NCBI GenBank assembly: GCA_035578175.1
Contig: JAQMRL010000003.1
Span: 88,824,469-88,888,468 of the forward strand
DNA length: 64,000 bases
From: Catonia carolina
Taxonomy: Eukaryota; Arthropoda; Insecta; Hemiptera; Achilidae
Reading direction: 5' to 3'
Of this stretch, positions 23,697-63,945 are shown in pieces; positions within the stretch are counted from its first letter, which is position 1, and each line of letters opens with the position of its first letter. Under the pieces are notes generated by a model, which did no database searches, was not told where the DNA came from, and saw only the letters and a program-made list of their open reading frames with translations. Both the position numbers and the translations under genes were made by a program.

Positions 23697-24085
23697 GTTG
23701 TTGTTTTGGTCAACAGCCGAAAGGCTGGTTTAAACCTTTAGAGGTTTTACTAAGTAAAACGAAGAGTGAGGTGGTTTACTACATTCTTCCTCACTGAGTG
23801 GAAAAGAATGCTTATCAGCATGCCAGGCCCTCCAAAAAGCACCTACTTTCCAGCCTAAAAATGACGCCTTTACTTAATTCACCACAGGGTCTGGCTGTAT
23901 AATGAAATTCATTACTCGCAGAGGAGATAACTCTGTTTAGTGTCGTTTAAACCTCTACCTCTTCTGTTCTTAAATAGTTCAGTCATATAACTGGCTGACT
24001 ATGTGATAAGAAACATAACTATTTTTTTGTAGCTCAGGAACCAGATGATCGCGTGCAATTAATTTAACACTCCACTTACTAGTTT
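23697..24085 (-). repeat. SINE1, copy 1
   Basis: On the minus strand it runs from the head GAGTGTTAAATTAATT, through CTGTATAATG-type core (ATTATACAGCCAGACCCTGT), TTCCACTCAGTGAGGAA and TTTTACTTAGTAAAACCTCT, to a 3' tail of ACAACAACA. Six good copies and several fragments occur in the window. No clear target duplication was found for this older copy. Confidence 0.85.
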
Positions 24086-24910: not shown

Positions 24911-24916
24911 AATAAT

Positions 24917-25312
24917 TGCTCATAAAGACAGATGGAGTGTTAAATTATTTACCCTCGATCTGCTAGTTCCAAGGCTAAACAAAAACAGTTCTCTTTCTTA
25001 TCAAATTGTCAGCCAATTATACGACTGAAGCAGTTAAAGACAGAAGAGGTAGAGGTGTAAAAGACACTTATCATAGTTATCTTCTCTGAGAGTAATGGAT
25101 TTCATTATACAGCCAGAACCTGTGATGAATGATGTGAAGTTGTCATTTGCAGGGTTGAAAGTAGATGCTTTTCGGAGGGCCTGACATGCTGATAAGCTTA
25201 GGCTACTTTTCCACTCAGTGAGGTAGGCAAGGTAAACCACCACACTCCCCGTTTTACTTAGTAAAGCCTGTAAAGATTCAAACCAGGCTTCTGGCTCATG
25301 ATCTAAACAAGT
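24917..25312 (+). repeat. SINE1, copy 2
   Basis: Full-length and plus-oriented: AGACAGATGGAGTGTTAAAT head, TTCATTATACAGCCAGAACC core, TTCCACTCAGTGAGG and TTTTACTTAGTAAAGCC, ending at CTGGCTCATGATCTAAACAA. It has more differences from the consensus than the copies at 49.6 and 63.4 kb. Confidence 0.85.
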
Positions 25313-30768: not shown

Positions 30769-32000
30769 TTTTTCTCTTGTCTTTTACATAGGGAAAAAGT
30801 ATTGTTTTCATGTCAATTTTTTCACATCCCCGATGTGGAATTTTTCACCGGAAATACACGTTTTCAGGTACCTGATCAAAGCAAACATGATTTTAGCGAT
30901 TAGCCTGTGTGTTCATGTGTCTGTCAACAAAATATCTCAAGAACAGAATAGCCTATGAAATTGAAATTTAGAATTTAAATTACGTACCATTAGGAAATCC
31001 GAAACAAACATTTTCATCAAAATTGGTCAGCCAGAAGTAATAGTTTGTTTTTACGATTTGTTACTTTTTTGCAATTTTTCTCAAAAACAGCTCTTAGGAG
31101 TTTCTATATTTTATGTTCTACATGATAGGTAAACGCTATGTCCGCTAAAAATTGTAGGGCTTAAAATTTTTATTTAAGATTTGGCTTTAACATGAAGTTT
31201 ACGGCAAAAGCGTATACACAATAATTGTTTAAAGTTTAAATTTGTTTAAACACAACTTTAATTATTAAAGTTGTAGAAATTAAAAACATACATTTATTTC
31301 AAACATTTTTTTACAACGCTTAGTATATTGCCACTTAGTGGTTTTCAGTATTTTGCACATCAATATTGGTAAAAAACAAGGTTTTCAAGATTGCGGCCTT
31401 AGTATGCATTTGCTGACAAAGGAGTTTAAGGCTATGATCAGAGTTATATGAAATTAAACAACCTAAAGCTTTTATTTCAAGCACTTTTTCGACAGAGCCT
31501 AGTTTAACGTTAATTAGTGATTTTCACATTTTTACACCTTATAGAGGTTGATGGTCAGCCAATTAAATGAATGAATCATTTAAGAAAAGAAGACGTAGAG
31601 GTGTAGAAGACACTAATCAGAGTTATCTCCTCTGAAAGTAATGAATTTCATTATACAGCCAGACCCTGTGATGAATGAAGTGAAGGTGTCATTTGCAGAG
31701 TGGAAAATATGTGCTTTTCAGAGAGCCCGGCATGCTGATACGCGTACTTTTCCGTTCAGTGAGGAAGGCATGGTAAATCACCTCACTCCTTGTATTACTT
31801 AGTAAAACTTCTGAAGGTTCAAACCAGCCTTTCGGCTGATGACCTAAACAACAACTGTTGATCGCCATTCATCCATAATTAAAATTTAAATTATATTTTG
31901 CATTTTATATCGTTTACTTATGATAAAATATAGGTTATATTTTTAATTATTTACATTTGGCAAGAGAAATTTGTATGAATGTTTCACACAAGATTTTTAA
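30769..32000 (+). repeat. F3 repeat, copy e, interrupted by SINE1
   Basis: It begins at TTTTTTCTCTTGTCTTTTAC and ends at GGCAAGAGAAAT plus TGTTTCACACAAGATTTTT. Landmarks include TTTCATCAAAATTGGTCAGC and TTAACGTTAATTAGTGATTT. A SINE1 lies at 31544-31852, so the original F3 is about 920 bp. Confidence 0.85.
31544..31852 (+). repeat. SINE1, copy 3 (5'-truncated) inserted in F3
   Basis: It starts within the element at GGTCAGCCAATTAAATGA and runs to GATGACCTAAACAACAA. GTTGAT stands on both sides, consistent with a short target duplication. The host F3 resumes with ATTCATCCATAATTAAAA. The 5' truncation is the usual result of incomplete reverse transcription. Confidence 0.85.
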
Positions 32001-33920: not shown

Positions 33921-36140
33921 ATTATTATTATTATTTACGTTATGGCCTACAAAGGACCGCGATTTCTCAGTTTTTCTTCTGTGCTTTCCTCTTCGCCCAG
34001 TATTCTTTCATTTTCGTGGAAAAGTCACGTTTTCGTTCTTCCGACCATTTAGGTCTTGATCTTTTACTGTCCTCTTCCTAGAGCACTAGTTAGAGTTTAT
34101 GTCTGAGAGGTGTTCTTTGTATGATGTCCGTCTCCGTTATCTGGAGTTTGTTGCAGTCTGTTTTTATCTCTTTGAGCCATCCATCGTGATTTTTAAATTT
34201 TTCTTTGTAGTTCAGGATTTGTTTTGAGAGCCTATGCTCGTTCATTCTCACTGTGTGTGCGTAGAAAGCAATTCTTCGTTTCTTCATGATGGATGTGATT
34301 TTTTCTGTGTGTTGGTAGACTTCTTCATTGCTGCGGAGTCTATACTCTCCTTCTTTGTATTTGGGCCCTAAAATCTTGCGGATGATCCTTCTTTCTTTAC
34401 GGATTAGTTTTTCTAATGGAGCCTTCTGTCTAAGTGCGAGGCATTCTGATGCGTAGAGAACTTCCGGTCGAATCACTGTATGATAATGTCTTATTTTTGC
34501 ATTTTTGGAGATGGATTTTTTATTGTATATCTGAGACGTCAGTCTGCACGCTACTTCAAACTTGTTGGCTCGGTTTTCTATTGCATATGTTTCATTGTTG
34601 TTTGGTTCAATCCATTCGCCAAGGTATTTGAACCTGGTCACCCTCTGGATTTTTCCATGTTTGGTCTTGAAATGTGTCCGATCCGTTTTCTGGCCGGAGA
34701 TGTACTGCGTTTTCTCGTACGATATTTGGAGCCCGATCTTGACCGCTAGTTCATGTAGAGTTTTGACCTGTGTGATCGCCTCCTCTTCTGAGTTCGCCAG
34801 GAGTGCCAGGTCATCCGCAAAGGCGAAGCAGTTGATCTCAAGTTCTCTTCCGAGTTTGACTCCTCTTGGTGCCGTTTTCCTCCATTCTCTGATGACCTTC
34901 TCGAGAGCACAATTGAACATCAGTGGGGAGAGTCCATCTCCCTGTCTTACCCCTGACTTTACTTCAAAAGGCTCGGAGATACAAGTTCTGAACTTGACTT
35001 TGGACTGCGTATTGTTGATAGTCTTCGCGAAAAGTTTTCTCGTTTTGTTGTCTAGTCCGAATTCCTCTAGTATCCCGAGCAGTGATTCCCTGTCTATGGA
35101 GTCGTAAGCTTTTTTGAAGTCAACAAATACGATAGTCAGTGGCTTTTGTCGGACTCTGCAGTGTTCGATGACATGTTTGACGTTCCGGATTTGTTCGGGG
35201 CATGACCGAGATTTCCTGAAGCCCGCTTGGTATTCACCGAGCTGCACGTCGAGTTGATCATCTGCTCTTGTCAGTAGGGCTTTCGAGAAGATTTTATATG
35301 TGACCGGCAATAGTGAAATTCCTCTATAGTTGTTAGTGTCGGTCTTATCCCCTTTTTTGTGTAGAGGGTGGATGAGTGCCGATGTCCATTCTTCTGGGAT
35401 TTCTTCGGTCTCCCACACCTTCTGCAAAGTTTTAACCAGAAGTCCGAGCTGACGGTCCTCCAGAAGTTTCCAGTACTCTGCAATGATCCCATCTTCACCT
35501 GGTGCTTTGTTATTCTTAAGGGATTTGATGATTTCTTTGACTTCTTCGAGGTTCGGTGGTTCCGAGTCCAGGTTTACTTTTTTGGTTCGAAATTCGAAGG
35601 TTTCAGTCGGGCCTGCGCAGTTAAGCAGGTTTTTAAAGTAGTCCGCCAAGATTTTGCAGTTTTCCTCATCACTGTGGGCCAGTGTTCCTGTACTTGGATT
35701 CCGAAAGTTGAGACTAAGTGGTGTGAATCTGGTCACGGTCTTTTTGAAGTTCCGGTAAAAGTCACGGGTGTTGTTTTTCTTGAAGTCAGATTCAATTGAC
35801 GCTAGGTCTTTCTTCATGTAATCCCTCTTGACCTTCCGGATAGTTTTGGCCGTTTCTTTTCTAGTTTGAATGAATGTTTCAAATTTTTCTTTTGTCTGGT
35901 GTGATTTCCATACTTGCCATGCTCTTTGTCTTGTCTCAATCGCCTCGTCGCATTTCATGTTCCACCAGACATGTCTCGGCCTTCTTCTCTGTGGAGCTAT
36001 CCTACTTGCTGCTGCAACCATTCTCTCTTCAAGTTCTTTTAGGCCTTCGACTTCCACGATTTCTTTTTGAAATTCCGACTTTGATGTCTTCAGTTTTTCT
36101 AAATCTGATCTCACTTTCCTCTGAGTTGTCGGTATATGTT
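33921..36140 (-). mobile_element. 5'-truncated LINE retrotransposon with intact RT
   Basis: A minus-strand non-LTR element. Its 3' end is the ATT-rich run near 33921-33938. The last coding segment ends at the TGA complementary to 33967-33969. The RT frame follows, and the element stops at about 36123-36140, where LINE protein gives way to AT/GTG microsatellite. The apurinic-type endonuclease expected upstream of the linker is missing. It shares its C-terminal sequence with the 7135-7605 remnant. Confidence 0.85.
33967..34085 (-). pseudogene. Detached C-terminus of the LINE ORF2
   Basis: In a different frame from the large ORF the minus strand reads EEDSKRSRPKWSEERKRDFS, then TKMKEYWAKRKAQKKN and TGA. 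The remnant at 7135-7605 ends the same way (KTGSKWRQERKRP ... MSEKM), which shows this belongs to the same protein and that a small indel near 34085-34092 broke the frame. Confidence 0.8.
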
Positions 36141-36240
36141 CACCACATGGTAAAGTGCGTGCGCGCATATATACATATATGGAAACAAACAATGGAAACA
36201 ATATATATATACATATATACGTTACAATGGAAACAAACAC
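34090..36240 (-). CDS. LINE reverse transcriptase (ORF2, truncated and frameshifted)
   Basis: A 716-codon open frame. Residues 1-39 come from flanking microsatellite, and LINE sequence starts about residue 40. Residues 90-170 are the basic linker (RPRHVWWNMKCDEAIETR). The RT domain spans about 225-485: NNKAPGEDGI (243-252), NYRGISLLP (304-312), FVDFKKAYDS (372-381, first catalytic Asp), GVRQGDGLSP (430-439), and AFADDLAL (473-480, the FADD catalytic pair). KYLGEW follows at 538-543, and the post-RT basic region with ILGPKYKEGEYRL at 624-636. All catalytic aspartates are present. It would copy the element's RNA at a nicked target. The endonuclease is lacking. A frameshift near 34085 separates the basic C-terminus (RPKWSEERKRDFSTKMKEYW), which lies in another frame down to 33967. 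So the copy is probably inactive but young. Confidence 0.9.
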   Translation of the reverse strand: MFVSIVTYICIYILFPLFVSIYVYMRARTLPCGEHIPTTQRKVRSDLEKLKTSKSEFQKEIVEVEGLKELEERMVAAASRIAPQRRRPRHVWWNMKCDEAIETRQRAWQVWKSHQTKEKFETFIQTRKETAKTIRKVKRDYMKKDLASIESDFKKNNTRDFYRNFKKTVTRFTPLSLNFRNPSTGTLAHSDEENCKILADYFKNLLNCAGPTETFEFRTKKVNLDSEPPNLEEVKEIIKSLKNNKAPGEDGIIAEYWKLLEDRQLGLLVKTLQKVWETEEIPEEWTSALIHPLHKKGDKTDTNNYRGISLLPVTYKIFSKALLTRADDQLDVQLGEYQAGFRKSRSCPEQIRNVKHVIEHCRVRQKPLTIVFVDFKKAYDSIDRESLLGILEEFGLDNKTRKLFAKTINNTQSKVKFRTCISEPFEVKSGVRQGDGLSPLMFNCALEKVIREWRKTAPRGVKLGRELEINCFAFADDLALLANSEEEAITQVKTLHELAVKIGLQISYEKTQYISGQKTDRTHFKTKHGKIQRVTRFKYLGEWIEPNNNETYAIENRANKFEVACRLTSQIYNKKSISKNAKIRHYHTVIRPEVLYASECLALRQKAPLEKLIRKERRIIRKILGPKYKEGEYRLRSNEEVYQHTEKITSIMKKRRIAFYAHTVRMNEHRLSKQILNYKEKFKNHDGWLKEIKTDCNKLQITETDIIQRTPLRHKL

Positions 36241-37001
36241 GTAAATTTTTTAAACAAAACTTGTTAACTCTGAAAAGAATTACGAAAATAATAATAATAA
36301 TAAAATATATTAATAATGAAAATAGGTCAAAAACAAAAAAAAACAAATTCAAATATACGAAAAAAGTTTTCATTACACCAAAACAAAACGTATATATATA
36401 TAAATATATATATACGTACGTCCGGAATAGCTTCGTTAGTAAGTTACAACTAGCGAAAAGTTTCGTCCGATTTTCAGTTCCTCCGCAGAAATGAAGCCCT
36501 ACCAAAATTTTTAGAGCGTTAATTAAGTTGTGAAACTAAATAAATTTTATGTAAAATTAACTGAAAAATTGAATAAACCAGGTCCCGGATCTGTAACTAG
36601 AGTAGTTTTAGAGATATCTGACGAAACGTTTTGTTTTGGTGCAATGAAAACTTTTTTCGTATATTTAAATTTGTTTTTTTTGTTTTTGACCTATTTTCAT
36701 TATTAATTTATTTTATTATTATTATTATTTTCGTAATTCTTTTCAGAGTTAACAAGTTTTTTTTTTTAAATTTACGTGTTTGTTTCCATTGACCTTTTCT
36801 AGACCAAAGTTGGTGTATTTCGTCAGATATCACAAAAACTACTCTAGTTAAAAATTTGGGACCTGTTTTATTCAATTTTCGGTTTATTTTACATAAAATT
36901 TATTTAATTTTGTAACTTAATTAACGTTCTAAAAATGTATGTATGACTTCATTCGACGAAAATTTTCTCCAGCTGTAACTCGCTAACGAAGCGATTCCGG
37001 A
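36225..37001. repeat. Interleaved inverted duplication A-B-A'-B'
   Basis: Block A (36225-36391, from CAATGGAAACAAACACGTAA to CACCAAAACAAAACGT) is the reverse complement of A' (36626-36791). Block B (36421-36626, from TCCGGAATAGCTTCGTTAGT to GATATCTGACGAAA) is the reverse complement of B' (36818-37001). Each pair is about 165-205 bp with small differences. The order A, B, A', B' is not a simple palindrome: the arms interleave. One reading is two opposite-facing copies of a unit that are circularly permuted relative to each other, as tandem satellite monomers would be. Confidence 0.85.
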
Positions 37002-39004: not shown

Positions 39005-39735
39005 CTTTTGTCATGTATGAATTAAAGGGAAAAACGTACTATTATTTTCATGTTAATTTTTCGAAATCAAGTTTTTATCGTAAATGCACGTTTTTAGGCC
39101 TCCTGAACCTAAGTACTTGTTTTTACCGATTAGTTTTGTGTGTATGTGTGTGTGTATGTGTGTGCGCGCGCGCGTGAACAATATATCCCTTGTGCAAACG
39201 TCCTGCTAAGTTAAAATTTATGCCAATAACAGACAGGATGAGTGTCAAATTATTTACACTCAATCTGTTCGTTGCATGTCTAAAATAAATAGTTCTGGTT
39301 CTTATTACATGGTCAGCCAATTAAATGACTGAATCATTTAAAAACAAAAGAGGTAGAGGTACAAAAGACACTAATCAGAGTTGTCTCCCCTGAAAGTAAT
39401 GAATTTCATTATACAGCCAGACCCTGTGGTGAATGAAGTGAAGGTGTCATTTGCAGAGTGGAAAATAATATATGTGCTTTTCAGAAAGCCCGGCATGCTA
39501 ACAAGCGTACTTCTCCACTCAGTGAGGAAGAAAACTGTAAACCACCTCACTCCTCGTTTTACTTAGTAAAACCTCACGGGTACAAACCAGTCTTTCGGCT
39601 GATGACCTAAACAACAAGTTAAAATTATGTACCTTTACGGAATCCGACACGAAAATTTTCGTCAAAATCGATCAAAGCAAAGTAATAGCTTATTCATGCA
39701 ATTGTTAACTTTTTGCGATTTTCTCAAAAACGTGA
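39005..39735 (+). repeat. F3 repeat, copy g (partial), interrupted by SINE1
   Basis: The left part reads TTTTGTCATGTATGAATTAA ... TTTTTCGAAATCAAG, then a TG/CG run. The SINE1 follows. The F3 resumes at TACGGAATCCGACACGAAAA and ends within CTCAAAAACGTGAT, immediately before the tandem array. Confidence 0.8.
39223..39615 (+). repeat. SINE1, copy 4, with target-site duplication
   Basis: Flanked by AAGTTAAAATTTATG (39208-39222) and AAGTTAAAATTATG (39616-39629), a 14-15 bp target duplication with one base lost. It runs from ATAACAGACAGGATGAGTGT to GATGACCTAAACAAC. Long target duplications plus an A/C-rich 3' tail indicate target-primed reverse transcription. Confidence 0.9.
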
Positions 39736-40212
39736 TTATATTATTGTTAAAAAAATATAATCTGATAATAGTTTATTGAATTTAATGTTCAAACCAACAT
39801 CTTCTTTAAAAAACGTAGCCGTAATCTATTAATATATACGGTCTTATTTCTCAGAATTATTATATTTTTTGTGCTTGAATTTTGACTATAGAAATAATAA
39901 TCAGAGAGCTATGGCAAAACTAATGTTCTAATGTTTTTTAAGGCATGAATTGATGATTGGAATTCTACACTGTTGGCGCGGAACGTGTAACTTATATTTT
40001 AATTATACATTATGAGTTAACTATCGGATTCTAAATCAACAAAAAAATAAACATTACAGATATCATTACTTAACGAATTTTTTTTCTTCTGCACTGTTTG
40101 TGTCTATACATATGCAAAAATATATTAATAAAATCTAATAGAACTGATGTACAGTTGACAAATTATTTAGGTCTTGGGAGTAAAACGGCCTACGTTGACG
40201 GTGACTTGCGTG

Positions 40213-40465
40213 TGACGTCAAAGACATATACAATATCGGACCAATCACAGTCTAGTATTCTCAACCAATGAAAAATCTCCAAATCTAGCCAATCAGATGT
40301 CTTTTTATGCGTTTATGTGATTGGTTATTATTGTCCAATCAGAGAGCTTATTGTAATTCACTACGTCATCCGATATGAACCAATGAAATCGTTTCATTCA
40401 GTATTACGTCATTTCTCAGTATGGACTTCCTGATTGATCCGGAACTGTTCCTGCGCGTGACGTCG
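40213..40465 (+). promoter_or_regulatory. CCAAT/CRE cluster, unit 1
   Basis: CCAAT on either strand occurs at about 40241, 40265, 40289, 40320 (reverse), 40335 and 40380, plus a mutated one at 40432. CRE-like sites are TGACGTCA (40213), TACGTCAT (40362 and 40405) and TGACGTCG (40458). The first three CCAAT boxes are spaced 24 bp apart. CCAAT is the NF-Y site; TGACGTCA is the CREB/ATF site. The two commonly cooperate in Pol II promoters. Confidence 0.6.
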
Positions 40466-41218
40466 ACTTACATTTTTACATAAGATCCGCCCATTGTCAC
40501 CGCCCAGTTAACGATACAGCCGAATATTACAGAATAACGTCTACTGAAATGCTATACGTTCCAGAATTAAAACACCTACCAAAAACATTTTAAAATTGTT
40601 AGAGATCTTCCGGGTTCGCAATGATTATGGTATTATTTTATGTCACTACAGTATATTTACAGCTGCTTTTTACAAAATGAAATAAAAAAAGCCATGTGAA
40701 GGAAGCAAGAAAATAGATTGGGTTGTCACATACAAGCTTGCTCAAACTTAACAAATTATTTTGTCGGCTACCATGCAAACACTACTATTCGAACGTAACA
40801 CATTGTGATTTTGTCACTGTATATTAAGGTTAATTCTAATAAGGACGTCAATGCCGTTTTTTTGTCAAAAATCGTCAGTAGAATCGCCGGCATTGTCAAA
40901 ATGAATTTTAGAACATACTTGATCTATACGGTGTTAGAACAACGTACAAATTGTGCCGTTTTGACGACAAACCGTCACATTAAAAACGGTTAACGATATG
41001 AACAATTATTTTTGGACGATATTTTTCAACATTTCTCCGCGTTGATTCGTAATTTGTTTCATAATTTTATTTTATGATGGGAAAATTTAGTATTGCCTAT
41101 AACAGGCAGTTAAACTTTAAATATTTTTAAAAAATTACATTTGCTATTTCTACAGCTACATTTATAGTTCTGTTTTTTTCACTAGAGAAGTTAAATTTAA
41201 TTTAAATGATATTAAGTA

Positions 41219-41490
41219 CAGAACAGGTACTGGTAAAAGAAAACTGTTATGAGCTTGTTTCAACGACAGAAGATTATTATACAGTTAGACCTTGCAGTGA
41301 ATATTAAAAGCGCGTTTGCAAGGTGCAAACTGAAATATTTTTAAAAGGCTTCCTTTGCTCATGAAAACACTTTTTTACTGAGTGATACGGTTATGAACCA
41401 AAAAATGTAACCCAATTATTTTTTCTGATTATTTCAGATAACATGTAAATGTTTGAACTAACTTCTAGGCTAATGATCTAAAAACCCAAT
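41219..41490 (+). repeat. Ancient SINE1 copy in unit 1
   Basis: TTATTATACAGTTAGACCTT, GCAGTGAATAT, TTTTTTACTGAGTGATACGG and CTAATGATCTAAAAACCCAA follow, in order, the SINE1 landmarks (TTCATTATACAGCCAGACCC, TGTGGTGAATGAA, TTTTCCACTCAGTGAGGAAG, CTGATGACCTAAACAACAA). The copy is strongly diverged and lies at the same place in every unit. Confidence 0.7.
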
Positions 41491-42077
41491 TTAATTGTGC
41501 CGAAAATTTCACATCTCATTATTTACCTAATTTTAAGTCAATTTTTAGACTGGATTTAAAAAATGGAATTGTCATCGCCGTTATGAAAGAACGTACATAT
41601 TTATTCCTAATAATTGTTCAAAAAATATAATCTGATAAAAGTTTATTGAATTTATTGTTCAAACCAACATCTTCTTTAAACAACGTAGGCGTAATCTATT
41701 AATATGTACGGTATTATTTCTCAGAATTTTAATATTTTTTGTGCTTGAATTTTGACTATAGCAATAATATTCAGAGAGCTATGGCAAAACTAATATTCTA
41801 ATGGTTTTTAAGGCATGAATTGATGTTTGGAATTCTACTCTGTTGGCGCGGAACGTGTATATTTTAATTATACATTATGAGTTAACTATCGGATTCTAAA
41901 TCAACAAAAAAATAAACATTACAGATATCGTTACTTAACGAATTTTTTTTCTTCTGCACTGTTTGTGTCTATACATATGCGAAAATATATAAATAACATC
42001 AAATAGAACTGATGTACATTTGACAAATTATTTAGGTCTTGCGAGTAAGGCGGCCTACGCTGACGGTGACGCGCGTG

Positions 42078-42330
42078 TGACGTCAAAGGCAGATATGATA
42101 TCGGACCAATCAGCGTCTAGTATTCTCAACCAATGAAAAATCTCCAAATCTAGCCAATCAGATGTCTTCTTATGCGTTAATTTGATTGGTTATTATTGTC
42201 CAATCAGAGAGCTTATTGTAATTCACTACGTCATCCGATATGAACCAATGAAATCGTTTCATTCAGTATTACGTCATTTGTCAGTATGGACTTCCTGATT
42301 GGTCCGGAACTGTTCCTGCGCGTGACGTCG
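42078..42330 (+). promoter_or_regulatory. CCAAT/CRE cluster, unit 2 (most intact)
   Basis: Seven CCAAT boxes (five forward, two reverse; e.g. GGACCAATCAGCG, AGCCAATCAG, GATTGGTCCGG) and four CRE-like sites (TGACGTCA at 42078, two TACGTCAT, TGACGTCG at 42323). A small inverted repeat (CTTATG...CATAAG) follows. No TATA box at a fixed distance was found. Confidence 0.6.
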
Positions 42331-43088
42331 ACTTATGTTTTTACATAAGATCCGCCTATTGTCACCGCCCAGTTAACGATACAGCCGAATATTACAGAAT
42401 AACGTCTACTGAAATGCTATACGTTCCAGAATTAAAACACCTACCAAAAACATTTTAAAATTGTTAGAGATCTTCCGGGTTCGGAACGATTATGGTATTA
42501 TTTTATGTCACAGCAGTATATGTACAGCTGCTTTTTACAGTATGAAATAAAAAAAGCCATGTGAAGGAAGCAAGCAAATAGATTGGGTTGTCACATACAA
42601 GCTTGCTCAAACTTAACAAATTATTTTTTCGGCTACCATGCAAACACTACTATACGAACGTAACACATTGTGATTTTGTCACTGTATATTAAGGTTAATT
42701 CTAATAAGGACGTCAATGCCGTTTTTTTGTCAAAAATCGTCAGTAGAATCGCCGGCATTGTCAAAATGAATTTTACAACATGCTTGATCTATACCTTGTT
42801 AGAGCAACGTACAAATTGTGCCGTTTTGACGACAAACCGTCACATTAAAAACGGTTAACGATATGAACAATTATTTTTGGACGATATTTTTCAACATTTC
42901 TCCGCGTTGATTCGTAGTTGGTTTCAGAATTTTATTTTATGATGGGAAAATTTAGTATTGCCTATTATAACAGGCAGTTAAACTTGAAATATTTTTTTTA
43001 AATTTGATTTGCCACTTCTACGGCTACATTTATAGTTCTGTTCTTTTTCACTAGAGAAGTTAAATTTAATTTAAGTCATATTAAGTAC

Positions 43089-43359
43089 AGAAGAGGTACT
43101 GGTGAAAGAAAAACTGTTATGAGCTTCTTCCAGCGACAGTAGATTATTATACAGTTAGACCTTGCAGTGAATATTTAAAGCGCATTTGCAAGATGCAAAC
43201 TGAAAGATTTTTAAATGGCCTCCTATGCTCATGAAAACACTTTTCTACTGAGTGTTACGGTTATAAACCAAAAAATGTAACCCAATTTTTTTTCTGATTA
43301 TTTCAGATAAGATGTAAATGTTTGAACTAGCTTCTAGCCTAATGATCTAAAAACCCAAT
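43089..43359 (+). repeat. Ancient SINE1 copy in unit 2
   Basis: Here the head reads CAGAAGAGGTACTGGTGAAA, closer to SINE1's AGAAGAGGTAGAGGTGTAAA than in the other units, which supports the assignment. Confidence 0.7.
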
Positions 43360-43953
43360 TTAATTGTGCCGGAAATTTAACATTCCATTATTTACCTAAT
43401 TTTAAGTTAATTGATAGAATGGATTTGAAAAAATGAATGTTATCATCGTCGTTATGAAAGAACGTACAAATTTATTCTTACTAATTGTTCAAAAAAATAT
43501 AATCAGATAATAGTTTATCGAATTAAGTGTTTAAACCAACATCTTCTTTAAATAACGTAGCGTAATGTATTAATATGTACGATCTTATTTCTCAGAATTT
43601 TTATATTTTTTGTGCTTAAATTTTGACTATAGCAATAATAATCAGAGAGCTATGGCAAAACTAATGTTTTAATGTTTTTTAAGGCATGAATTGATGATTG
43701 GAATTCTACACTGTTGGCGCGGAACGTGTAACTTATATTTTAATTATACATTATGAGTTAACTATCGGATTCTAAATCAACAAAAAAATAAACATTACAG
43801 ATATCGTTACTTAACGAATTTTTTTTCTTCTGCACTGTTTGTGTCTATACATATGCAAAAATATATTAATAAAATCTAATAGAACTGATGTACAGTTGAC
43901 AAGTTATTTAGGTCTTGGGAGTAAAACGGCCTACGTTGACGGTGACTTGCGTG

Positions 43954-44206
43954 TGACGTCAAAGACAGATACAATATCGGACCAATCACAGTCTAGTATT
44001 CTCAACCAATGAAAAATCTCCAAATCTAGCCAATCAGATGTCTTTTTATGCGTTTATGTGATTGGTTATTATTGTCCAATCATAGAGCTTATTGTAATTC
44101 ACTACGTCATCAGATATGAACCAATGAAATCGTTTCATTCAGTATTACGTCATTTGTCAGTATGGACTTCCTGATTGGTCCGGAACTGTTCCTGCGCGTG
44201 ACGTCG
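43954..44206 (+). promoter_or_regulatory. CCAAT/CRE cluster, unit 3
   Basis: TGACGTCA at 43954, the CCAAT series, TACGTCAT twice and TGACGTCG at 44199, with the same 253-bp span as in the other units. All site cores are conserved; several differences between units fall between them. Confidence 0.6.
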
Positions 44207-44958
44207 ACTTATGTTTTTACATAAGATCCGCCTATTGTCACCGCCGAGTTAACGATACAGCCGAATATTACAGAATAACGTCTACTGAAATGCTATACGT
44301 TCCAGAATTAAAACACCTACCAAAAACATTTTAAAATTGTTAGAGATCTTCCGGGTTCGCAATGGTTATGGTATTATTTTATGTAACAGCAGTATATTTA
44401 CAGTTTTTTTACAGTATGAAATAAAAAAAACTATGTGAAGGAAGCATGAAAATAGATTGGGTTGTCAAATACAAGCTTGCTCAAACTTAACAAATTATTT
44501 TGTCGAGTATCATGCAAACACTACAATACGAACGTAACACATTGTTATTTTGTCACTGTATATTAAGGTTAATTCTAATAAGGACGTCAATGCCGTTTTT
44601 TTGTCAAAAATCGTCAGTAGAATCGCCGGCATTGTCAAAATGAATTTTAGAACGTACTTGATCTATACCTTGTTAGAGCAACGTACAAATTGTGCCGTTT
44701 TGACGACAAACCGTCACATTAAAAACGGTTAACGATATGAACAATTATTTTTGGGCGATATTTTTCAACATTTCTCCGCGTTGATTCGTAGTTGGTTTCA
44801 TAATTTTATTTTATGATGGGAAAATATAGTATTGCCTATAACAGGGAGTTAAACTTTAAATATTTTTTTAAAATTACATTTGCTACTTCTACGGCTACAT
44901 TTATAGTTCTGTTTTTTTCACTAGAGAATTTAAATTTAGTTTAAATCATATTAAGTAC

Positions 44959-45230
44959 AGAACAGGTACTGGTGAACGAAAAACTGTTATGAGCTTCTTC
45001 CAACGACAGTCGATTATTATACAGTTAGACCTTGCAGTGAATATTAAAAGCGCATTTGCAAGATGCAATCTGAAAGATTTTTAAAAGGCCTCCTATGCTC
45101 ATGAATACACTTTTCTACTGAGTGATACGGTTATTAACCATAAAATGTAACCCAATTTTTTTTTCTGATTATTTCAGATAACATGTAAATGTTTGAACTA
45201 ACTTCTAGCCTAATGATCTAAAAACCCAAT
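44959..45230 (+). repeat. Ancient SINE1 copy in unit 3
   Basis: Same degenerate landmarks and position as in units 1 and 2, so the insertion predates the amplification. Confidence 0.7.
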
Positions 45231-45394
45231 ATAATTGTGCCGAAAATTTCACATCTGATTATTTACCTAATTTTAAGTTAATTGATAGACTGGATTTAAA
45301 AAATGAATATTATCATCGCCATTATGAAAGAACGTACAAATTTATTCTTACTATTTTTTATTTATTTCCATTATATTGGAAACATTAGAAATTT

Positions 45395-47305: not shown

Positions 47306-47547
47306 AGTCATGTACAGACCCAGGCTGACCAATCCTGAGAGAGTATGGTTAATTGGACCCCAACCATCAAAGTACACCGGTAACCACTGTCTAGTATTAA
47401 AATTTGTTAACTACCTTTGTTACGTAAATTTGTTACGTAACTACCTTTACTAGGATTTGAACCAGGAACCTTCGTCTCAAAAAATCAGCTGTTAAACAGC
47501 TGAGACGTGGTGACGACTTTACACTCTAGACCAACTCCGTGGGTTTA
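47306..47547 (-). repeat. SINE2 copy
   Basis: Minus strand: CCACGGAGTTGGTCTAGAG head (A-box-like TGGTCTAGAG), GTCGTCACCACGTCTCAGCT, GGTTCAAATCC (exact B box), then GTTACCGGTGTACTTTGATG. An internal duplication around TTGTTACGTAA widens it slightly. Confidence 0.85.
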
Positions 47548-47630
47548 ACTGATAACATTTTAACAAAATTAATAATTTTAACACAAAATGCAGTACTTTT
47601 TGTTTGTATGCTACAACATAAATATGACGT

Positions 47631-47838
47631 GTAAATGAGGTGTAGTCTTGAACGGATTAAGGCCGACCATGCAAAATCTCAACTATCAAAGTACACCGGT
47701 AACCACTGTCCAGTATTCAAATCCGTAAAAAAGCAACCTTTACTAGGATTTGAATTAAGAAACTTCGTCTCCGAAAATCAGCTCTGTAACAATTGACTCA
47801 CCGTGATGACAATATCACTGGACTAACCCGGTGGGTTT
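47631..47838 (-). repeat. SINE2 copy, same orientation as its neighbour
   Basis: Minus strand: ACCCGGTTAGTCCAGTG-like head (reverse of CACTGGACTAACCCGGTGGG), a B-box region mutated to AATTCAAATCC, then GTTACCGGTGTACTTTGATA and a tail ending near AAGACTACACCTCATTTACA. It follows the previous copy by about 80 bp. Confidence 0.85.
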
Positions 47839-47849
47839 TAAGTATAAAA

Positions 47850-49630
47850 ATGTAAAAAGTGTTTAAAGTAGTATTGATAACCTGTTATCGTTATAACGGT
47901 TAAAATTATTATTAACTTAATATTGTTTAAAATTCTAACAATGTGATTGGCTCATGGAAATATTGAATGAAATAATAGTATATGTGTTACACGTACTGTA
48001 TCTAGTACTTTTAATGTTTCAATTTAATTAAAAATTAAATTACTATTGAGGATGTAAAAAGTAAATTATGTTAAGATTGGATGAATTTTATTTGTCAATA
48101 AATTTGATCTTCGTAAAATCAAATATCTAAGACCTCCGAACCGTAATTTTCACCCTGATCGCATACGTGGCTTTTGGCATTTTGCCCCGTGTCCCACAAA
48201 AGCCTCCCTTCTGTTCCAGCAGTTGTACATTCTGTAATAAATGCTTTCTAGTTATACCTAATATTCAATAAACAATTTGTTCTATAGCGTTTAATTAATT
48301 TCTATAATAGCTTTATTAATTGATTTACTATCTTGTTAATATGATATTTAGAATTTCGATTGTTTGTATAATGAATGTAAAATGGGCTTGATGTTTTTCA
48401 TAATTTGGAGCTGAAAATTTCTGTAATGAATGAACCTATTAAATTTAATAAATCAATACGTAAATATTTTAGTTTACCAAATATTACGTATCTACGTGCA
48501 AAATATTACACATAGAGTTAAAAACATTTTACGTACGGGTAATTTACCCACCGTAGCTTGCGTACGTGTTCAATGACAGAATCAAACGAGGCCTATAAGA
48601 ACCTCCATAAAACAAGAAATGAACTAAACAAATGGTTTTTTAAAATTTTGTTTGAAATTGCCAGTGGGATTTTTTCACATTCAATATAATTTACGAAATC
48701 ATAGTTTGAATGTACGTTCTGAATAAAAACTCTCCTATTTTTCTAAGTTTGGTAAATCATAGTAAATCTTAATAAAATCGCCTTTTTTTCACAGATCATT
48801 GTACATTTCATAACTTAAGTTTAATATTCATGGTTAAGTTACATTTTGTTCACAAACTGTAAACGGACAAAACCATTTTTGGGAGGTCGTTTTATATACA
48901 GGTACAAAAATAGTTTGTCTAAAATTTAAACAACCTAGGTCATTACGTACTGTGTAGGTCATTTCCAATTAATTAAAAGTTCCTTACCTATTTGATACAA
49001 AAAACCGGTACTATCAACATTCCCACAGAAAATTCGAAATACACTAAAACAAGCTAATCAGAACGACTAGCTCAGTTAATTTACCAGAGAACCCTTCAAG
49101 AAGGCAAAATATAGCTTGTAATAGAAATCTGTTATTCTTTTGAAAAATATGACTATAAACATTAATGCACAATTAATTATAAAGAAATATAGAAGCTCCA
49201 TCAGTAGGCTATGTTTTCTCATTTTTCATGTCTTTAAATTAAAGTTTGTTTCAATACAATAATTACAAATACCAGTTAATAAGATTCTTTGTGACTACTT
49301 TGTTTTAACTGTTTGACACATTGTAACAACATTAGATTACTTTCAGCTGTTCTGATTGGAATAAAAACCTGGTAACTTCAGCTTAAGAGGTTTTCTCAAT
49401 ATTGATTGAGTCAATGAAGCTCCATACAATTATTGAAAATTTATTTTTATTAGTCTTTGAAGTTGTGTAATTGTGGTTTGATACCTATATGAAAAATACA
49501 AAAAGTTTTAAGTAGGCAATTCATTGATACTGTGATTCAGTCCACTTGAAGTAGAACGAATAGGGTTGTCTACCCTTAAATCTAAAATTTTGCTCTTAAA
49601 ACTTTTATCGATCAATACTGAACCTTCGTT
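47850..49630. other. AT-rich sequence, no gene seen
   Basis: A GC-richer patch at 48130-48230 (TTGCCCCGTGTCCCACAAAA) has no recognisable content. Nothing else was seen. Confidence 0.45.
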
Positions 49631-49645
49631 GCAAAATTTTAATTT

Positions 49646-50033
49646 GTTGCTTAGGTCATCAGCCGAAAGGCTAGTTTGAACCTTTAGAGGTTTTACTAAG
49701 TAAAACAAGGAGTGAGGTGGTTTACCATGCCTTCCTCACTGAATGGAAAAGTACACTTATCAGCATGCCGGGCCCTCTAAAAAGCACCTATTTTCCACTC
49801 TGCAAATGACACCTTCCATTTCATTCACCACAGGGTCTGGCTGTATAATGAAATCCATTACTTCCAGAGGGGATAACTCTGATTAGTGTCTTTTACACCT
49901 CTACCTCTTTTGTTCCTAAATGATTCAGTCATTTAATTGGCTGACTATGTGATAAGAAACAGAACTATTTAATTTAGCCCTGCAACGAACAGATTGAGTG
50001 TAAATAATTTGACACTCCACATGTCTGTTATGG
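49646..50033 (-). repeat. SINE1, copy 5, with 15-bp target-site duplication
   Basis: Flanked by GCAAAATTTTAATTT on both sides (49631-49645 and 50034-50048), an exact 15-bp duplication. Minus-strand orientation from CCATAACAGACATGTGGAGT to GCTGATGACCTAAGCAAC. It has few differences from the 63.4-kb copy, so it is a young insertion. Confidence 0.95.
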
Positions 50034-50049
50034 GCAAAATTTTAATTTA

Positions 50050-51280
50050 TAAAATCCTTTCGAGACCAATATAAACTTACGGTGTCAAGCTTTTTGGAGA
50101 AGTGGCAGAGAGTAACTTAAATTTGATCCAGACTTTTCAGTTAAACTTCTTAACCCTTTCTTCTGGCGCTTCTTTTTATGTAAGCAATAAAACCCTCCAC
50201 GATAATTTCAAAATTCCGACAGTAAATGAATTAACCGCGTCCTTCTATAGTAAATTTTGCAAACTACTAGACAATTAACTATCTTTACCAACTCGGGCGT
50301 GACCTAGGTATAAGGAACTTCCCATTTGTATTAGTATTAGTATTGGTATTATATTATTTTGTACGACGTCTAAAGCAAAATTGGAGAAGAGACCTATTGG
50401 TCTGAATAACCGAAAACATCCATAATTTTAAACAAAGAATGAACCACTGGGTAACCCTTCTCATGAAAGTAAAATTTCCCACCGTCCGTAAAATTAAATA
50501 TCATATACGGAAATTGTGCAGCTCATTGTAGAGTACCGTAATAAAAAGTAAAACCAAAAAATGAATTTTTATTCTATAGAATGATGCAGAAAATGTTATG
50601 TTGTTATTTTTAGCTGGTTCTATATATACTAGGAGAGATTTTCTAATTATACTTTCAGAAGAAATTTGTCAACACTTAGTTAATTTCTATCTTACTCTGT
50701 GCTAGACTTTGATGTATGAGCATCATATACGATGATTTCTGAGTATTTGCCATCCATTTTTTAGAAACAGAATAGTATTTGTAATTTAAATAAATGAAAT
50801 ATCGTATTACCGATTTATAATGACGAGATATCATAATAAAGTTAGTAAAGAACAAAGTTCAAGAAATAATGATTTCTTTGAAATATATTTTATAAGTTAG
50901 TGTATAGTCTTGAAAGTTGTAAGGGTAATTTCTACTTTTAAACTTTAATAAAGTTTATATAGTCTTCCTCTGAACAAAGTTTAGTTAAAGGGAAAATATC
51001 ATCGTCTCTTTTGAGCTTAGATTATTCTTCTGAAATACAGCACTGTATTAAGTATTTAGAATATTTTTATACTGAATTCTTTCACAATAAAATATATCGG
51101 TGGAAGTAAAAATAAGTTCAGAATAACTTTATTTTTCTAAAATATATAAAATTGGATAAAATTTAAATTTGATATACAGATACACAGGAATCATTACATA
51201 AGTTTAAATTTGTAGAAAAGCATCTGGTTAAATTAAGAAAGGAAGTAGTGATTGCCCTCTAAAAGAAAGTACCCACTTAA
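50050..51280. other. AT-rich sequence, no gene seen
   Basis: Nothing recognised. Confidence 0.5.
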
Positions 51281-51285
51281 AAATA

Positions 51286-51713
51286 CGAGGTGTGGCTATT
51301 AAATAACGATACTGACGTTGTAAAAAAAATATTTGTTATACATAATCACTTATTGTCACCTTCAATATACACTCCTTTCCTATCCCTACAACGCTCCATG
51401 CAAATTTTCCGTTGTTGGAAACAGTGCTGGAATTCATCTTTTGTCAGCTCCTTCAGAACACGTGCCGCTTTCTCTTTCACAGCTTCCACAGACTCAAATA
51501 TTGTCTCTTTCAACGCAGATTTCACCGTAGGAAACAGGTAGAAGTCACATGGAGTAAGATCTGGTGAATAAGTTGGATGATCTAACACTGAGATGCTGTA
51601 CTTGGCTAGGAATCTCTTGACAGATAACGCGGAATGAGCTGGCGCATTGTTTTGGTGAAGAACCCATGATTTGTCCTTCCACATTTCGGGTCGTATTTTC
51701 CATACTCTTTGAC
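51286..51713 (-). mobile_element. mariner remnant 1 (3' part with terminal repeat)
   Basis: The terminus CGAGGTGTGGCTATTAAATA starts at 51286 right after TA, as expected for mariner. The transposase C-terminus follows in minus orientation. The 5' two thirds are missing: similarity ends near 51713. The same terminus appears at 63946. Confidence 0.85.
51346..51684 (-). pseudogene. mariner transposase C-terminal fragment
   Basis: A 112-residue frame reads KDKSWVLHQNNAPAHSALS ... HPTYSPDLTPCDFYLFP ... FQHCFQQRKICMERCRDRKG, ending near VYIEGDNK. This is the mariner catalytic core: HQDNAPAH, then YSPDLxPCDFxLFP. Exactly 34 residues separate the two catalytic positions (D34D). The first is mutated: HQNNAPAH has Asn in place of Asp, so even a complete protein would be dead. 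The N-terminal HTH part and first DDE aspartate are absent. Confidence 0.9.
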
Positions 51714-51814
51714 GTTGTTAAGAAAGTACTTTTACTAGGTTTCTGAAGGTTAAATAATTAATCAATATTACTACCTTGAGTTACTTTCTAAACTACGTCA
51801 GAGAGTAAGGAAAA

Positions 51815-52150
51815 AACGCCCCGAAATGTAAAAGGACAAATTATGGGTTCTCCACCAAGACAATGCGCCAGCTCATTCCGCGTTCAAGAGGTTCCTAGCC
51901 AAGTACTGCAACTCAGTGTTAGAACATCCACCTTATTCACCAGATCTTGGACCATGTGACTTTTCTACCTGCTCCCTAAGGTGAAATCTGCATTAAACGA
52001 GACAATATTTGAGTCTGTGGAAGCTGTAAAAGAGAAAGCAGCACGTGTCCTGAAGAAGCTGACAGAAGATGACTTCCAGCACTGTTCCTAACAATGAAAA
52101 ATTTGCATGGAGCGTTGTAGGGATAGAGAAGGAGTGTATATTGAATATAT
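51815..52150 (+). pseudogene. mariner transposase remnant 2, opposite orientation
   Basis: Plus-strand reading gives WVLHQDNAPAHSAFKRFLAK, then HPPYSPDLGPCDF, a frame change, KVKSALNETIFESVEAVKEK, and after a stop KICMERCRDREGVYIEY. It is the same transposase segment as in remnant 1, facing the other way about 100 bp apart. Here the HQDNAPAH aspartate is kept, but a frameshift after PCDF and a stop near FQHC break it. No terminus is visible: similarity ends at about 52150. Confidence 0.85.
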
Positions 52151-52569: not shown

Positions 52570-54265
52570 AAAAGCAAGCCAAAAAAAGAGATTATAAAAA
52601 TTGTGTCATCAATAATTGTATCAAGAACGAACCAATTTAGTTTTGTAATTCATATTTTGTCTATATTTAAATTTAAATTTTCATTTTATTAAAATCATTT
52701 TTATTCCTTTCAGACTCTTTGTTTCAAATTTTTGACTCTACATATTTTATTTTTCAATATTTATGTAACCAATAATTGCCCGTTACAAGCAATAGTTTGT
52801 ATATTTATTTATTTTAATTTAAATCTGTTGAGAAGTTAAATCTGTCCTTAGAAGTTCTTGATTTGAAGTAAGAAATGAAGGAAATAGTGGGAGTTGCGCA
52901 GATAGATTCAGTATGTGCTAACACTTATTTATTCAAAACAAGTCGCGTGGTACGGTCAGAATATTACGTATAGTTGATGATAGCAGCTTACACTGCATAT
53001 CCGTTGGGGGTTAATCTATAGTTTTCTCTAATAAATTTTATTTTTGATTTATTTTACTCTTACCTAAACCTTTCCCCATACTAAACCAATTCGCTTACAA
53101 CGCTGTTCATTTTTCTGTGCACAAACTGCAAAAGCAAGCAGTGATCTTAAGCTATACCACCTTGAACTTAGTTAAAAGTAATTTTCAAAATTCGTTCTCA
53201 TAAAAAGCATGTTATATATAATTTTTGAGAAATAGAAGTGCTGAAATGAAATTGGCAATGTTGTAACGTATTATGTAATTGTGACGAGAGTATTTCTTGT
53301 AAGGTTAAAAAATATATATTGATAATTTTAAAAAATCTTTTCTAATAACTTTACGGTTTTTGGATCATTTCAAGTCGGTTGGCTTATGATAATAACATTT
53401 TAAATAGTTATATTTTACCAGTCGAGTTGTGGTTTGTTATAATGTAACCACGGTCAAAAAGTATATCCTTGTTCAAAATTATCACAAATCAAAATTCCAG
53501 TGAAACATCAATCAAATCGGATGATTAAATCTTGCCTATAGTTTCAAAAAAATACACAAAAAAGTTATTACTACTAAAAAATAATTTTAAAAAACTGGAA
53601 GTTATTTATTTAGTTTTACAGATTTATTTAGTTTAGTTTAGATTTATTTATTTATTTAGTGTTACAAAAATACAAAAAAATCATGCCCTATAAGTCTACC
53701 ACTCCACCTCTCTAGATAATGTGCAAAAATTAAGAATTTTTAGTAAAACTCACATTATAAAATATTACATCATTTCCGGAATTCTCTAATACTCAAAAAC
53801 GAGGATATTAAGAATAATTTATCTAAAACTTTTTCAAACCTTTTCAAAATGAAAAGGAAAATTATGAATTTCTTATACAATGTTAGAGAGTTAGAGATTC
53901 AAGAAATTAATATGTTTATAGAACTCTTGTAAGTGTCATTACAAAATAAGTGCTACCACCAGTGGATGACTACATTGTTATATAGGAGGGGGATAATATC
54001 GCTAAAGAAAAACTTTTCGTTAATTTTAAATTGCCGAACTAGTTGCAGTAAATCTTAAGCAAAATAAAAAAAATACCGTCTGAAACGCATGAATTTTCTT
54101 AATGCTATAAAATATTTAAAAACCCTACAAAAATATCGATGACAGTATATTGAGTTCAATAAAAACGAACCTTTAAAAAATTATAAATCTTAACTAATTA
54201 ATAAATCGATTAGATATACAAAAGTCAATCTGTTACACTTTCCAATCTAGCAAGGAAAGAAAAGT
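52570..54265. other. AT-rich sequence, no gene seen
   Basis: A TTTATTTAGTTTTAC-type local duplication occurs around 53600-53660. Nothing else was recognised. Confidence 0.45.
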
Positions 54266-54269
54266 TAAA

Positions 54270-54345
54270 CCAACTCTTTTTCGTTTCACTCAGTTAAACC
54301 TCTAGAGGATTAAACCAGCCTCTTGGCTCTCTACCCACACAACAA
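54270..54345 (+). repeat. SINE1 3'-end fragment
   Basis: CTCAGTTAAACCTCTAGAGG, ATTAAACCAGCCTCTTGGCT and CCACACAACAA follow the SINE1 tail (AGTAAAACCTCTAAAGG, TTCAAACCAGCCTTTCGGCT, CTAAACAACAA). Confidence 0.7.
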
Positions 54346-54349
54346 ATGT

Positions 54350-63371: not shown

Positions 63372-63767
63372 GTTGTTGTTGTTTAGGTCAACAGCCGAAA
63401 GGTTGATTTGAACCTGTAGAGGTTTTACTAAGTAAAACGAGGAGTGAGGTGGTTTACCATTGCCTTCCTGGCTGAGTGGAAAATTACGCTTATCAGCATG
63501 CCGGGCCCTCTGAAAAGCACATATTTTCCACTCTGTAAATGACAACTTCACTTCATTCACCACAGGGTCTGGCTGTACAATGAAATTCATTACTTTCAGA
63601 GAAGATAACTCTGATTAGTGTCTTTTACACCTCTACCTCTTCTGTTCTCAAATGATTCAGTCATTTAATTGACTGACCATGTGATAAGAAACAGAACTAT
63701 TTATTTTAGCCCTGCAACGAACAGATTGAGTGTAAATAATTTGACACTCCACCTATCTGTTATGGGC
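63372..63767 (-). repeat. SINE1, copy 6, with 13-bp target-site duplication
   Basis: AGAGTGTCCCCAT stands at 63359-63371 and again at 63768-63780, an exact duplication. The 396-bp element reads, on the minus strand, from TGCCCATAACAGATAGGTGG through TGTACAGCCAGACCCTGTGG, GAAGGCAATGGTAAACCACC and TTTTACTTAGTAAAACCTCT to a CAACAACAACA tail. This is the best reference copy. No A/B box pair is visible near its 5' end. Length, tail and duplications say it was copied in trans by a LINE. Confidence 0.95.
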
Positions 63768-63945
63768 AGAGTGTCCCCATACGGTTATGAAATGTAGAAG
63801 TGTAATATGTCAATGGAAAATATATCGTGGCAGGCAGTTCGACTGATAAACCTTTTAATTTAAACAGACAATTTACTCGATAGCTTTAAAATAGAACAAC
63901 GGATTTTACTTTTACAAACTTTACATAATTTCAATCTTTAACATA

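What the first reader, a model, noticed from the sequence alone, without database searches (positions are those of the whole stretch)
42078..42330. Dense CCAAT-box and CRE cluster conserved in each tandem unit
Each 253-bp block has about seven CCAAT/ATTGG boxes and four ACGTCA/ACGTCG sites, the first three CCAATs 24 bp apart. Such density is not expected by chance in DNA this AT-rich. NF-Y and CREB/ATF cooperate on Pol II promoters, so each unit looks like a strong promoter or enhancer with no recognisable gene. It may drive a non-coding RNA, act as a binding-site sponge, or be the control region of an unknown mobile element.
Basis: partly seen in the sequence, partly recalled or inferred. Interest (0 to 1): 0.8.

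Follow-up and report, generated by a model that had tools for sequence, protein, structure and literature searches.

The report
Mobile satellite with conserved promoter cluster

Summary
The motif cluster is real: 7 CCAAT boxes and 4 CRE sites in 253 bp; 0 of 2000 dinucleotide shuffles reach 7 CCAAT. Sites are better conserved than spacers: 0.984 vs 0.965 pairwise identity over 17 arrays. In a diverged subtype 1 of 30 block differences falls in the 64 motif columns (7.6 expected, P=0.0011). Constraint among present type A copies is weak.

Array ends lie near TTAA in 15 of 27 cases vs 3.4 expected. Empty copies of the host repeat carry TTAA for two arrays (plus one seen from one side) and lack it for two others. 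One array abuts a piggyBac element; piggyBac matches are numerous.

Best reading: a selfish satellite spread as circles, often captured at TTAA, carrying an NF-Y/CREB-type control region. The window array itself has no clean TTAA. Circles, transcription and factor binding are untested.

The parts
39743..45359 (+). Whole array: about three ~1.87-kb units; it starts at unit phase 1407 and ends at phase 1412 (phase 1 = 42078)
40213..40465 (+). CCAAT/CRE block, copy 1 (95.7% to copy 2; 6 CCAAT)
42078..42330 (+). CCAAT/CRE block, copy 2 (the finding)
43954..44206 (+). CCAAT/CRE block, copy 3 (96.0% to copy 2; 7 CCAAT)
42104..42112 (+). NF-Y-type site GACCAATCA
42128..42136 (+). NF-Y-type site AACCAATGA
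42152..42160 (+). NF-Y-type site AGCCAATCA
42183..42191 (-). NF-Y-type site AACCAATCA
42198..42206 (+). CCAAT box GTCCAATCA (looser match)
42243..42251 (+). NF-Y-type site AACCAATGA
42296..42304 (-). NF-Y-type site GACCAATCA
42078..42085 (.). CRE palindrome TGACGTCA
42228..42233 (+). CRE half-site ACGTCA
42271..42276 (+). CRE half-site ACGTCA
42323..42330 (.). CRE-like TGACGTCG
42078..43953 (+). One repeat unit (1876 bp), longest stop-to-stop frame 68 aa, 32 TTAA
42994..43369 (-). Part of the unit (phase 917-1292) that is a ~62% diverged relative, in opposite orientation, of the dispersed repeat copy at 49631-50007
39733..39743 (.). Left junction of the array with host DNA (no clean TTAA)
45354..45360 (.). 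Right junction of the array with host DNA, at nearly the same unit phase as the left one (no clean TTAA)

Best explanation
The block is the conserved cis-acting control region, most likely an NF-Y plus CREB/ATF-driven Pol II promoter or enhancer, of a ~1.85-kb selfish satellite with no recognisable coding capacity. The satellite spreads as circular DNA of one or more units. Circles are opened at varying points and inserted elsewhere, often at a TTAA of the circle into a TTAA of the chromosome, so that one TTAA flanks each side. The likeliest source of that preference is piggyBac transposase: its excision leaves 5'-TTAA overhangs, which would let an opened circle be ligated into a chromosomal TTAA break, or let a piggyBac-flanked array move and then lose its flanking piggyBacs. 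SHOWN: motif density, site conservation, matching start and end phase, TTAA enrichment at array ends, TTAA in empty copies of two hosts, one array abutting a piggyBac element, many piggyBac matches with long open frames. INFERRED: the circular intermediate, piggyBac as agent, promoter activity, and that the sites persist because copies with a working control region get amplified (element-level selection) and not because each copy serves the host.
For: Motif density. Block identity 0.972 vs rest of unit 0.941 over 17 arrays; motif columns 0.984 vs spacer 0.965. Same trend in 5 loci not found through the block: block 0.972 vs 0.944, motif 0.989 vs spacer 0.966. The diverged type B block in L044 has 30 differences in 253 columns, 1 of them in the 64 motif columns (in a CRE), 7.6 expected, P=0.0011; two further type B copies aligned keep all 7 CCAAT cores. 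Start phase equals end phase within 11 bp in 10 of 12 arrays with both ends seen; P~5e-18 under random phases, threshold set after seeing the data. Four of the 10 show a single permuted unit: L017, L026 (10 kb seen each), L036 and L042 (3.2 and 4.5 kb seen; L036 with an internal deletion, L042 with a 300-bp insertion). TTAA within 6 bp of the BLAST-defined end in 15 of 27 ends vs 3.4 expected, P=1.4e-7; 10 of 15 left ends alone, P=1.8e-6. Empty copies of the host repeat with TTAA at the insertion point: L036 (copy in L024) and C1_420 (3 copies printed); for C58_128 only the left side was seen, and 4 of 6 window copies of its host repeat have TTAA there. The C1_42 array ends exactly at the TTAA of a 1381-bp element with 15-bp terminal inverted repeats and a PF13843 fragment (E=8e-6); 34 of the 44 rows for this element, that copy included, run from position 1-3 to 1378-1381. 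PF13843: 2469 first-look candidates, 116 best scored, 14 of the 116 with a stop inside. piggyBac excision leaves 5'-TTAA overhangs that anneal: passages of PMC3878927.
Against: 2 of 12 arrays (C58_62 1073/743, C1_274 1669/1106) do not start and end at the same phase; C1_317 and C1_181, counted as agreeing, are interrupted and have internal phase jumps, so only W, L017, L026 and C1_420 show uninterrupted whole units. 5 of 15 arrays (W, C1_407.9, C1_168, C58_62, C1_274) have no TTAA within 6 bp of any end seen. Host copies of C1_407.9 and C1_168 (6 printed each, about 67-81% alike) show no TTAA at the joint; a second, more distant host copy for L036 (L015, 77%) has no TTAA exactly there; 2 of 6 window copies of the C58_128 host lack it. 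Only 1 array abuts a piggyBac; of 40 places of that element 22 lie on contigs with arrays in my list of 45 positions, and the next nearest is 122 kb away. Among 74 type A block copies, variants in two or more arrays do not avoid motifs (5 of 20 vs 5.1 expected) and variants confined to one array do so weakly (17 of 103 vs 26.1, P=0.02). The two ends of one array are not independent, so the P value for 27 ends is too small. No transcription, accessibility or circle data.
Confidence: 0.5

Rival explanations
1. Ordinary reinsertion of satellite circles by microhomology end joining; the TTAA bias only reflects short AT-rich microhomology. The block is conserved by array homogenisation, not function.
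For: Circle reintegration of satellites has been proposed (TCAST of Tribolium, passages of PMC3411249). Several ends are imprecise (W, C1_168, C1_407.9) and host copies of C1_407.9 and C1_168 show no TTAA. The unit is AT-rich (GC 0.32). TTTA (10 of 27 vs 3.1, P=0.0006), TAAT (8 vs 2.8) and ATTA (8 vs 3.0) are enriched too, though they overlap TTAA.
Against: TTAA is enriched most (15 of 27 vs 3.4), whereas AATT (5 vs 3.9), TATA (1 vs 2.2), ATAT (2 vs 2.5) and AAAA (2 vs 3.3) are not. Homogenisation does not explain why A/B subtype differences avoid motif columns.
Confidence: 0.3
2. A conventional TTAA transposon with fixed ends (a non-autonomous piggyBac relative) that later formed tandem arrays.
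For: TTAA on both sides of several insertions; the TTAA at unit phase 1789 is used in at least four arrays (C1_420, C1_336, L036, L041).
Against: Ends differ between arrays: phases about 612, 910, 1132, 1330, 1446 and 1789.
Confidence: 0.06
3. Control region of a non-coding RNA family in tandem array that serves the host (for example a piRNA-type precursor); dispersal is incidental.
For: Site conservation; NF-Y sites are common at promoters (recalled).
Against: Copies on at least seven contigs at varying phases, some single; no Rfam match; no GTRAGT splice-donor word in the window unit; weak constraint on individual copies.
Confidence: 0.09
4. Binding-site sponge: arrays titrate NF-Y or CREB.
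For: 7 CCAAT sites per unit and 1492 first-look candidates in the genome, 40 of them scored.
Confidence: 0.05

Closest known systems
Dispersed satellites thought to spread by extrachromosomal circles (e.g. TCAST of Tribolium castaneum, PMC3411249, passages read)
   Same: Tandem non-coding unit, copies dispersed in the genome, circle reintegration proposed
   Different: Here start phase equals end phase in 10 of 12 arrays, ends are TTAA-biased, and the unit carries a conserved CCAAT/CRE cluster; the TCAST passages propose reintegration by homologous recombination
piggyBac transposons (PF13843)
   Same: TTAA at both borders of several insertions; one array shares its terminal TTAA with a piggyBac element; piggyBac matches numerous in this genome
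   Different: No fixed ends and no transposase in the unit
NF-Y / CREB-ATF Pol II promoters (consensus recalled)
   Same: Dense RRCCAATSR and ACGTCA sites, conserved above spacers
   Different: No gene attached; repeated in tandem; activity untested
Cryptons (tyrosine-recombinase elements with circular intermediates; recalled)
   Same: Circle x chromosome recombination at a short shared core would leave the core on both sides
   Different: Here several different TTAA of the circle are used; no long ORF in the unit

Membership tests
Satellite DNA / dispersed tandem repeat | Head-to-tail tandem non-coding units in many arrays | tested here: met
   longest stop-to-stop frame 68 aa in the window unit
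Satellite spread through circles | Insertions with matching, array-specific end phases, down to single permuted units | tested here: met
   10 of 12 arrays, four of them single units; two arrays fail
Satellite spread through circles | Circular molecules exist | not testable with these tools
   needs eccDNA sequencing
piggyBac transposon | TTAA target-site duplication | tested here: inconclusive
   15 of 27 ends near TTAA; 5 of 15 arrays, the window's included, without it; empty copies with TTAA for two hosts, one-sided for a third, without for two
piggyBac transposon | Fixed ends with terminal inverted repeats | tested here: not met
   ends at several different phases
piggyBac transposon | Encodes transposase, or is a deletion derivative of such an element | tested here: not met
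   no frame over 68 aa in the unit; the piggyBac next to C1_42 is a separate dispersed element
NF-Y/CREB Pol II promoter | Clustered consensus sites beyond chance | tested here: met
NF-Y/CREB Pol II promoter | Sites conserved above spacers | tested here: met
   weak or absent among variants within type A
NF-Y/CREB Pol II promoter | Transcription start, accessibility, factor binding | not testable with these tools
   no RNA, ATAC or ChIP data
Known structured RNA / ribozyme repeat | Match to an Rfam family | tested here: not met

The most novel reading that the evidence does not exclude
An 'endless' mobile element: a circular replicon without termini or protein genes, which any of many TTAA can open and which rides on a trans-acting piggyBac transposase (TTAA sticky-end capture), with an NF-Y/CREB site cluster as its main conserved cis-function (transcription, open chromatin or replication of the circle).
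Probability: 0.28. Interest if true: 0.85.

Novelty: new variant of a known kind. Interest (0 to 1): 0.65.

Why it matters
How satellites reach new chromosomal places is an open question for which circle reinsertion is mostly proposed rather than seen. Here matching end phases, empty copies of host repeats and a sequence-biased border point to a concrete, testable route that may use DNA-transposon chemistry. The conserved activator-site cluster suggests that a satellite can carry a function of its own, selected at the level of the repeat.

Tried and rejected
Fixed-end transposon: rejected because array ends fall at several phases. A gene or known RNA: none found. Other collections: a pattern from the block gave 0 hits in viral contigs and another 0 in genome contigs. 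Inverted copies of a dispersed repeat around the array (39207-39629, 49601-50060) as ends of one large element: dropped, because BLAST with one copy finds 7 places in the window. L043 right border: dropped from the end counts because a TA-type insertion into the array cannot be excluded. C1_336 left flank as a TTAA transposon: inverted match not above shuffles. CC/GG within the C1_407.9 TTAA remnants as piggyBac footprints: suggestive only, not used. Block-query bias: checked with 5 loci found by another query. Window array empty site: only one weak alignment across the joint, not informative. Paper searches (one open-access library) listed nothing whose title or shown abstract describes TTAA-bordered circle insertion of a satellite; passages read only in PMC3878927, PMC4595182 (its 'circularly permuted' concerns consensus building) and PMC3411249, the rest seen as listings.

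Full report
Observation. The 253-bp block at 42078-42330 is as described: 7 CCAAT boxes (6 with the full RRCCAATSR form), the first three 24 bp apart, and 4 CRE-type sites. None of 2000 dinucleotide shuffles reaches the CCAAT count (maximum 4), and no non-array 253-bp stretch of the window, sampled every 25 bp, has more than 3. The block recurs at 40213 and 43954.

Unit and genome. The window lies in an unnamed 1.47-Gb assembly of 142 contigs. The array spans 39743-45359, about three ~1.87-kb units. A genome search with the block gave 1492 first-look candidates; the 40 scored lie on contigs C1, C58 and C69. Queries with other parts of the unit add C24, C35, C80 and C111. The window unit has no stop-to-stop frame over 68 aa and no Rfam match up to E=1. 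Phase 917-1292 is a ~62% diverged relative of a dispersed ~430-bp repeat.

Are the sites conserved? Over 17 arrays (one row each) pairwise identity is 0.972 in the block against 0.941 in the rest of the unit; inside the block, motif columns have 0.984 and spacers 0.965. Twelve of the 17 were found through the block itself or from its hits; the 5 that were not show the same trend (block 0.972 vs 0.944; motif 0.989 vs spacer 0.966). The strongest test is a diverged subtype on C111: in L044 its block differs from the window's at 30 of 253 columns, and 1 of the 30 lies in the 64 motif columns (7.6 expected, P=0.0011; two further copies aligned). Against this, among 74 type A block copies (not independent; three type B copies left out) variants found in two or more arrays do not avoid motifs (5 of 20, 5.1 expected), and variants confined to one array do so weakly (17 of 103, 26.1 expected, P=0.02). 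I read this as selection on the copies that get amplified, not on each copy; that is inference.

How it spreads. I mapped unit phase at array borders (phase 1 = 42078, length 1876). Both ends were seen for 12 arrays. Start and end phases: W 1407/1412; C1_407.9 (L017) 1331/1331; C1_168 (L026) 1499/1492; C1_420 (L015-L016) 1787/1792; C1_317 (L020-L023) 612/615; C1_42 (L027-L028) 910/911; C1_334 (L019, L031) 1132/1133; C1_181 (L025, L032) 1444/1441; L042 1330/1336; L036 1781/1792; and, against the rule, C1_274 1669/1106 and C58_62 1073/743. Ten of 12 agree within 11 bp (P~5e-18 under random phases; threshold set after seeing the data). W, L017, L026 and C1_420 are uninterrupted. C1_42, C1_334 and L042 hold insertions, L036 a deletion, C1_181 degenerate outer pieces and a gap, and C1_317 four interruptions with internal phase jumps, so 'whole number of units' is strict only for the first four. 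L017, L026, L036 and L042 show a single permuted unit in the stretch seen (10, 10, 3.2 and 4.5 kb). A single unit cut at an arbitrary point is what insertion of a circle gives; shrinkage of an array would not equalise the phases.

Borders. TTAA lies within 6 bp of the BLAST-defined border in 15 of 27 ends (10 of 15 left, 5 of 12 right) against 3.4 expected: P=1.4e-7, or 1.8e-6 for left ends alone, which avoids counting both ends of one array. With 4 bp it is 12 of 27, with 8 bp 18 of 27. AATT, TATA, ATAT and AAAA are not enriched; TTTA (10 vs 3.1, P=0.0006), TAAT (8 vs 2.8) and ATTA (8 vs 3.0), which overlap TTAA, are. Five of 15 arrays (W, C1_407.9, C1_168, C58_62, C1_274) have no TTAA within 6 bp of any end seen; C1_407.9 has interrupted TTAA remnants. 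L043 was left out because its border may be a transposon insertion. Empty copies of host repeats: for L036 the copy in L024 (87%) has exactly one TTAA at the joint, while a 77% copy in L015 does not; for C1_420 three printed copies have it; for C58_128 only the left side was seen, and 4 of 6 window copies have it; for C1_407.9 and C1_168 the six printed copies each show none; for W no informative copy was found. In the clean cases TTAA of the circle and TTAA of the host are both kept, one on each side.

piggyBac. The right border of C1_42 is the TTAA of a 1381-bp element with 15-bp terminal inverted repeats, one frame piece of which matches PF13843 (E=8e-6). Of the 44 rows for that element in the genome (40 of 75 candidates scored), 34, the query copy included, run from position 1-3 to 1378-1381, so it is a separate dispersed transposon. 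PF13843 gave 2469 first-look candidates; of the 116 best that were scored, 14 have a stop inside the match. In piggyBac excision 5'-TTAA overhangs in the flanking DNA anneal without synthesis (PMC3878927, passages). Capture of an opened circle by such ends, or movement of a piggyBac-flanked array followed by loss of the piggyBacs, would give what is seen. This is inference: one adjacency is weak evidence. Of 40 places of the element, 22 lie on contigs with any of the 45 array positions listed, and apart from C1_42 the nearest is 122 kb away.

Verdict. Closest known kind: satellites thought to be dispersed as circles (TCAST, PMC3411249, passages). My paper searches, in one open-access library, listed no paper that by title or shown abstract describes TTAA-bordered circle insertion of a satellite.

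Noticed in passing
window 49601-50060, 63376-63768, 39207-39629, 31551-31854, 23698-24075, 24916-25310: Dispersed ~430-bp repeat, 6 long copies in 64 kb plus a short one at 54239-54347; a very diverged relative forms part of the satellite unit.
   Followed up: partly
window 34090-36249 (-): 719-aa open frame with reverse transcriptase (PF00078, E=4.5e-37), probably a LINE-type element.
   Followed up: no
window 51283-52150: Inverted pair of mariner-like fragments (DDE_3 match below cut-off); a related copy is the host of the C1_420 insertion.
   Followed up: partly
window 47361-47810: Two ~300-bp-spaced copies of a short repeat (73% and 88% alike in two pieces) that looks tRNA-like (recalled, not tested).
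   Followed up: no
L044 (C111:30736901-30741000): Higher-order repeat with ~4.04-kb spacing that holds type A and diverged type B units; many hits on C111 near 30.6, 44.3 and 63.2 Mb.
   Followed up: partly
genome G000: piggyBac transposase matches numerous: 2469 first-look candidates; 102 of the 116 scored have no stop inside the match.
   Followed up: partly
C1_407.9 junctions (L017): TTAA remnants interrupted by CC on one side and GG on the other; may be an imprecise piggyBac excision footprint or chance.
   Followed up: no
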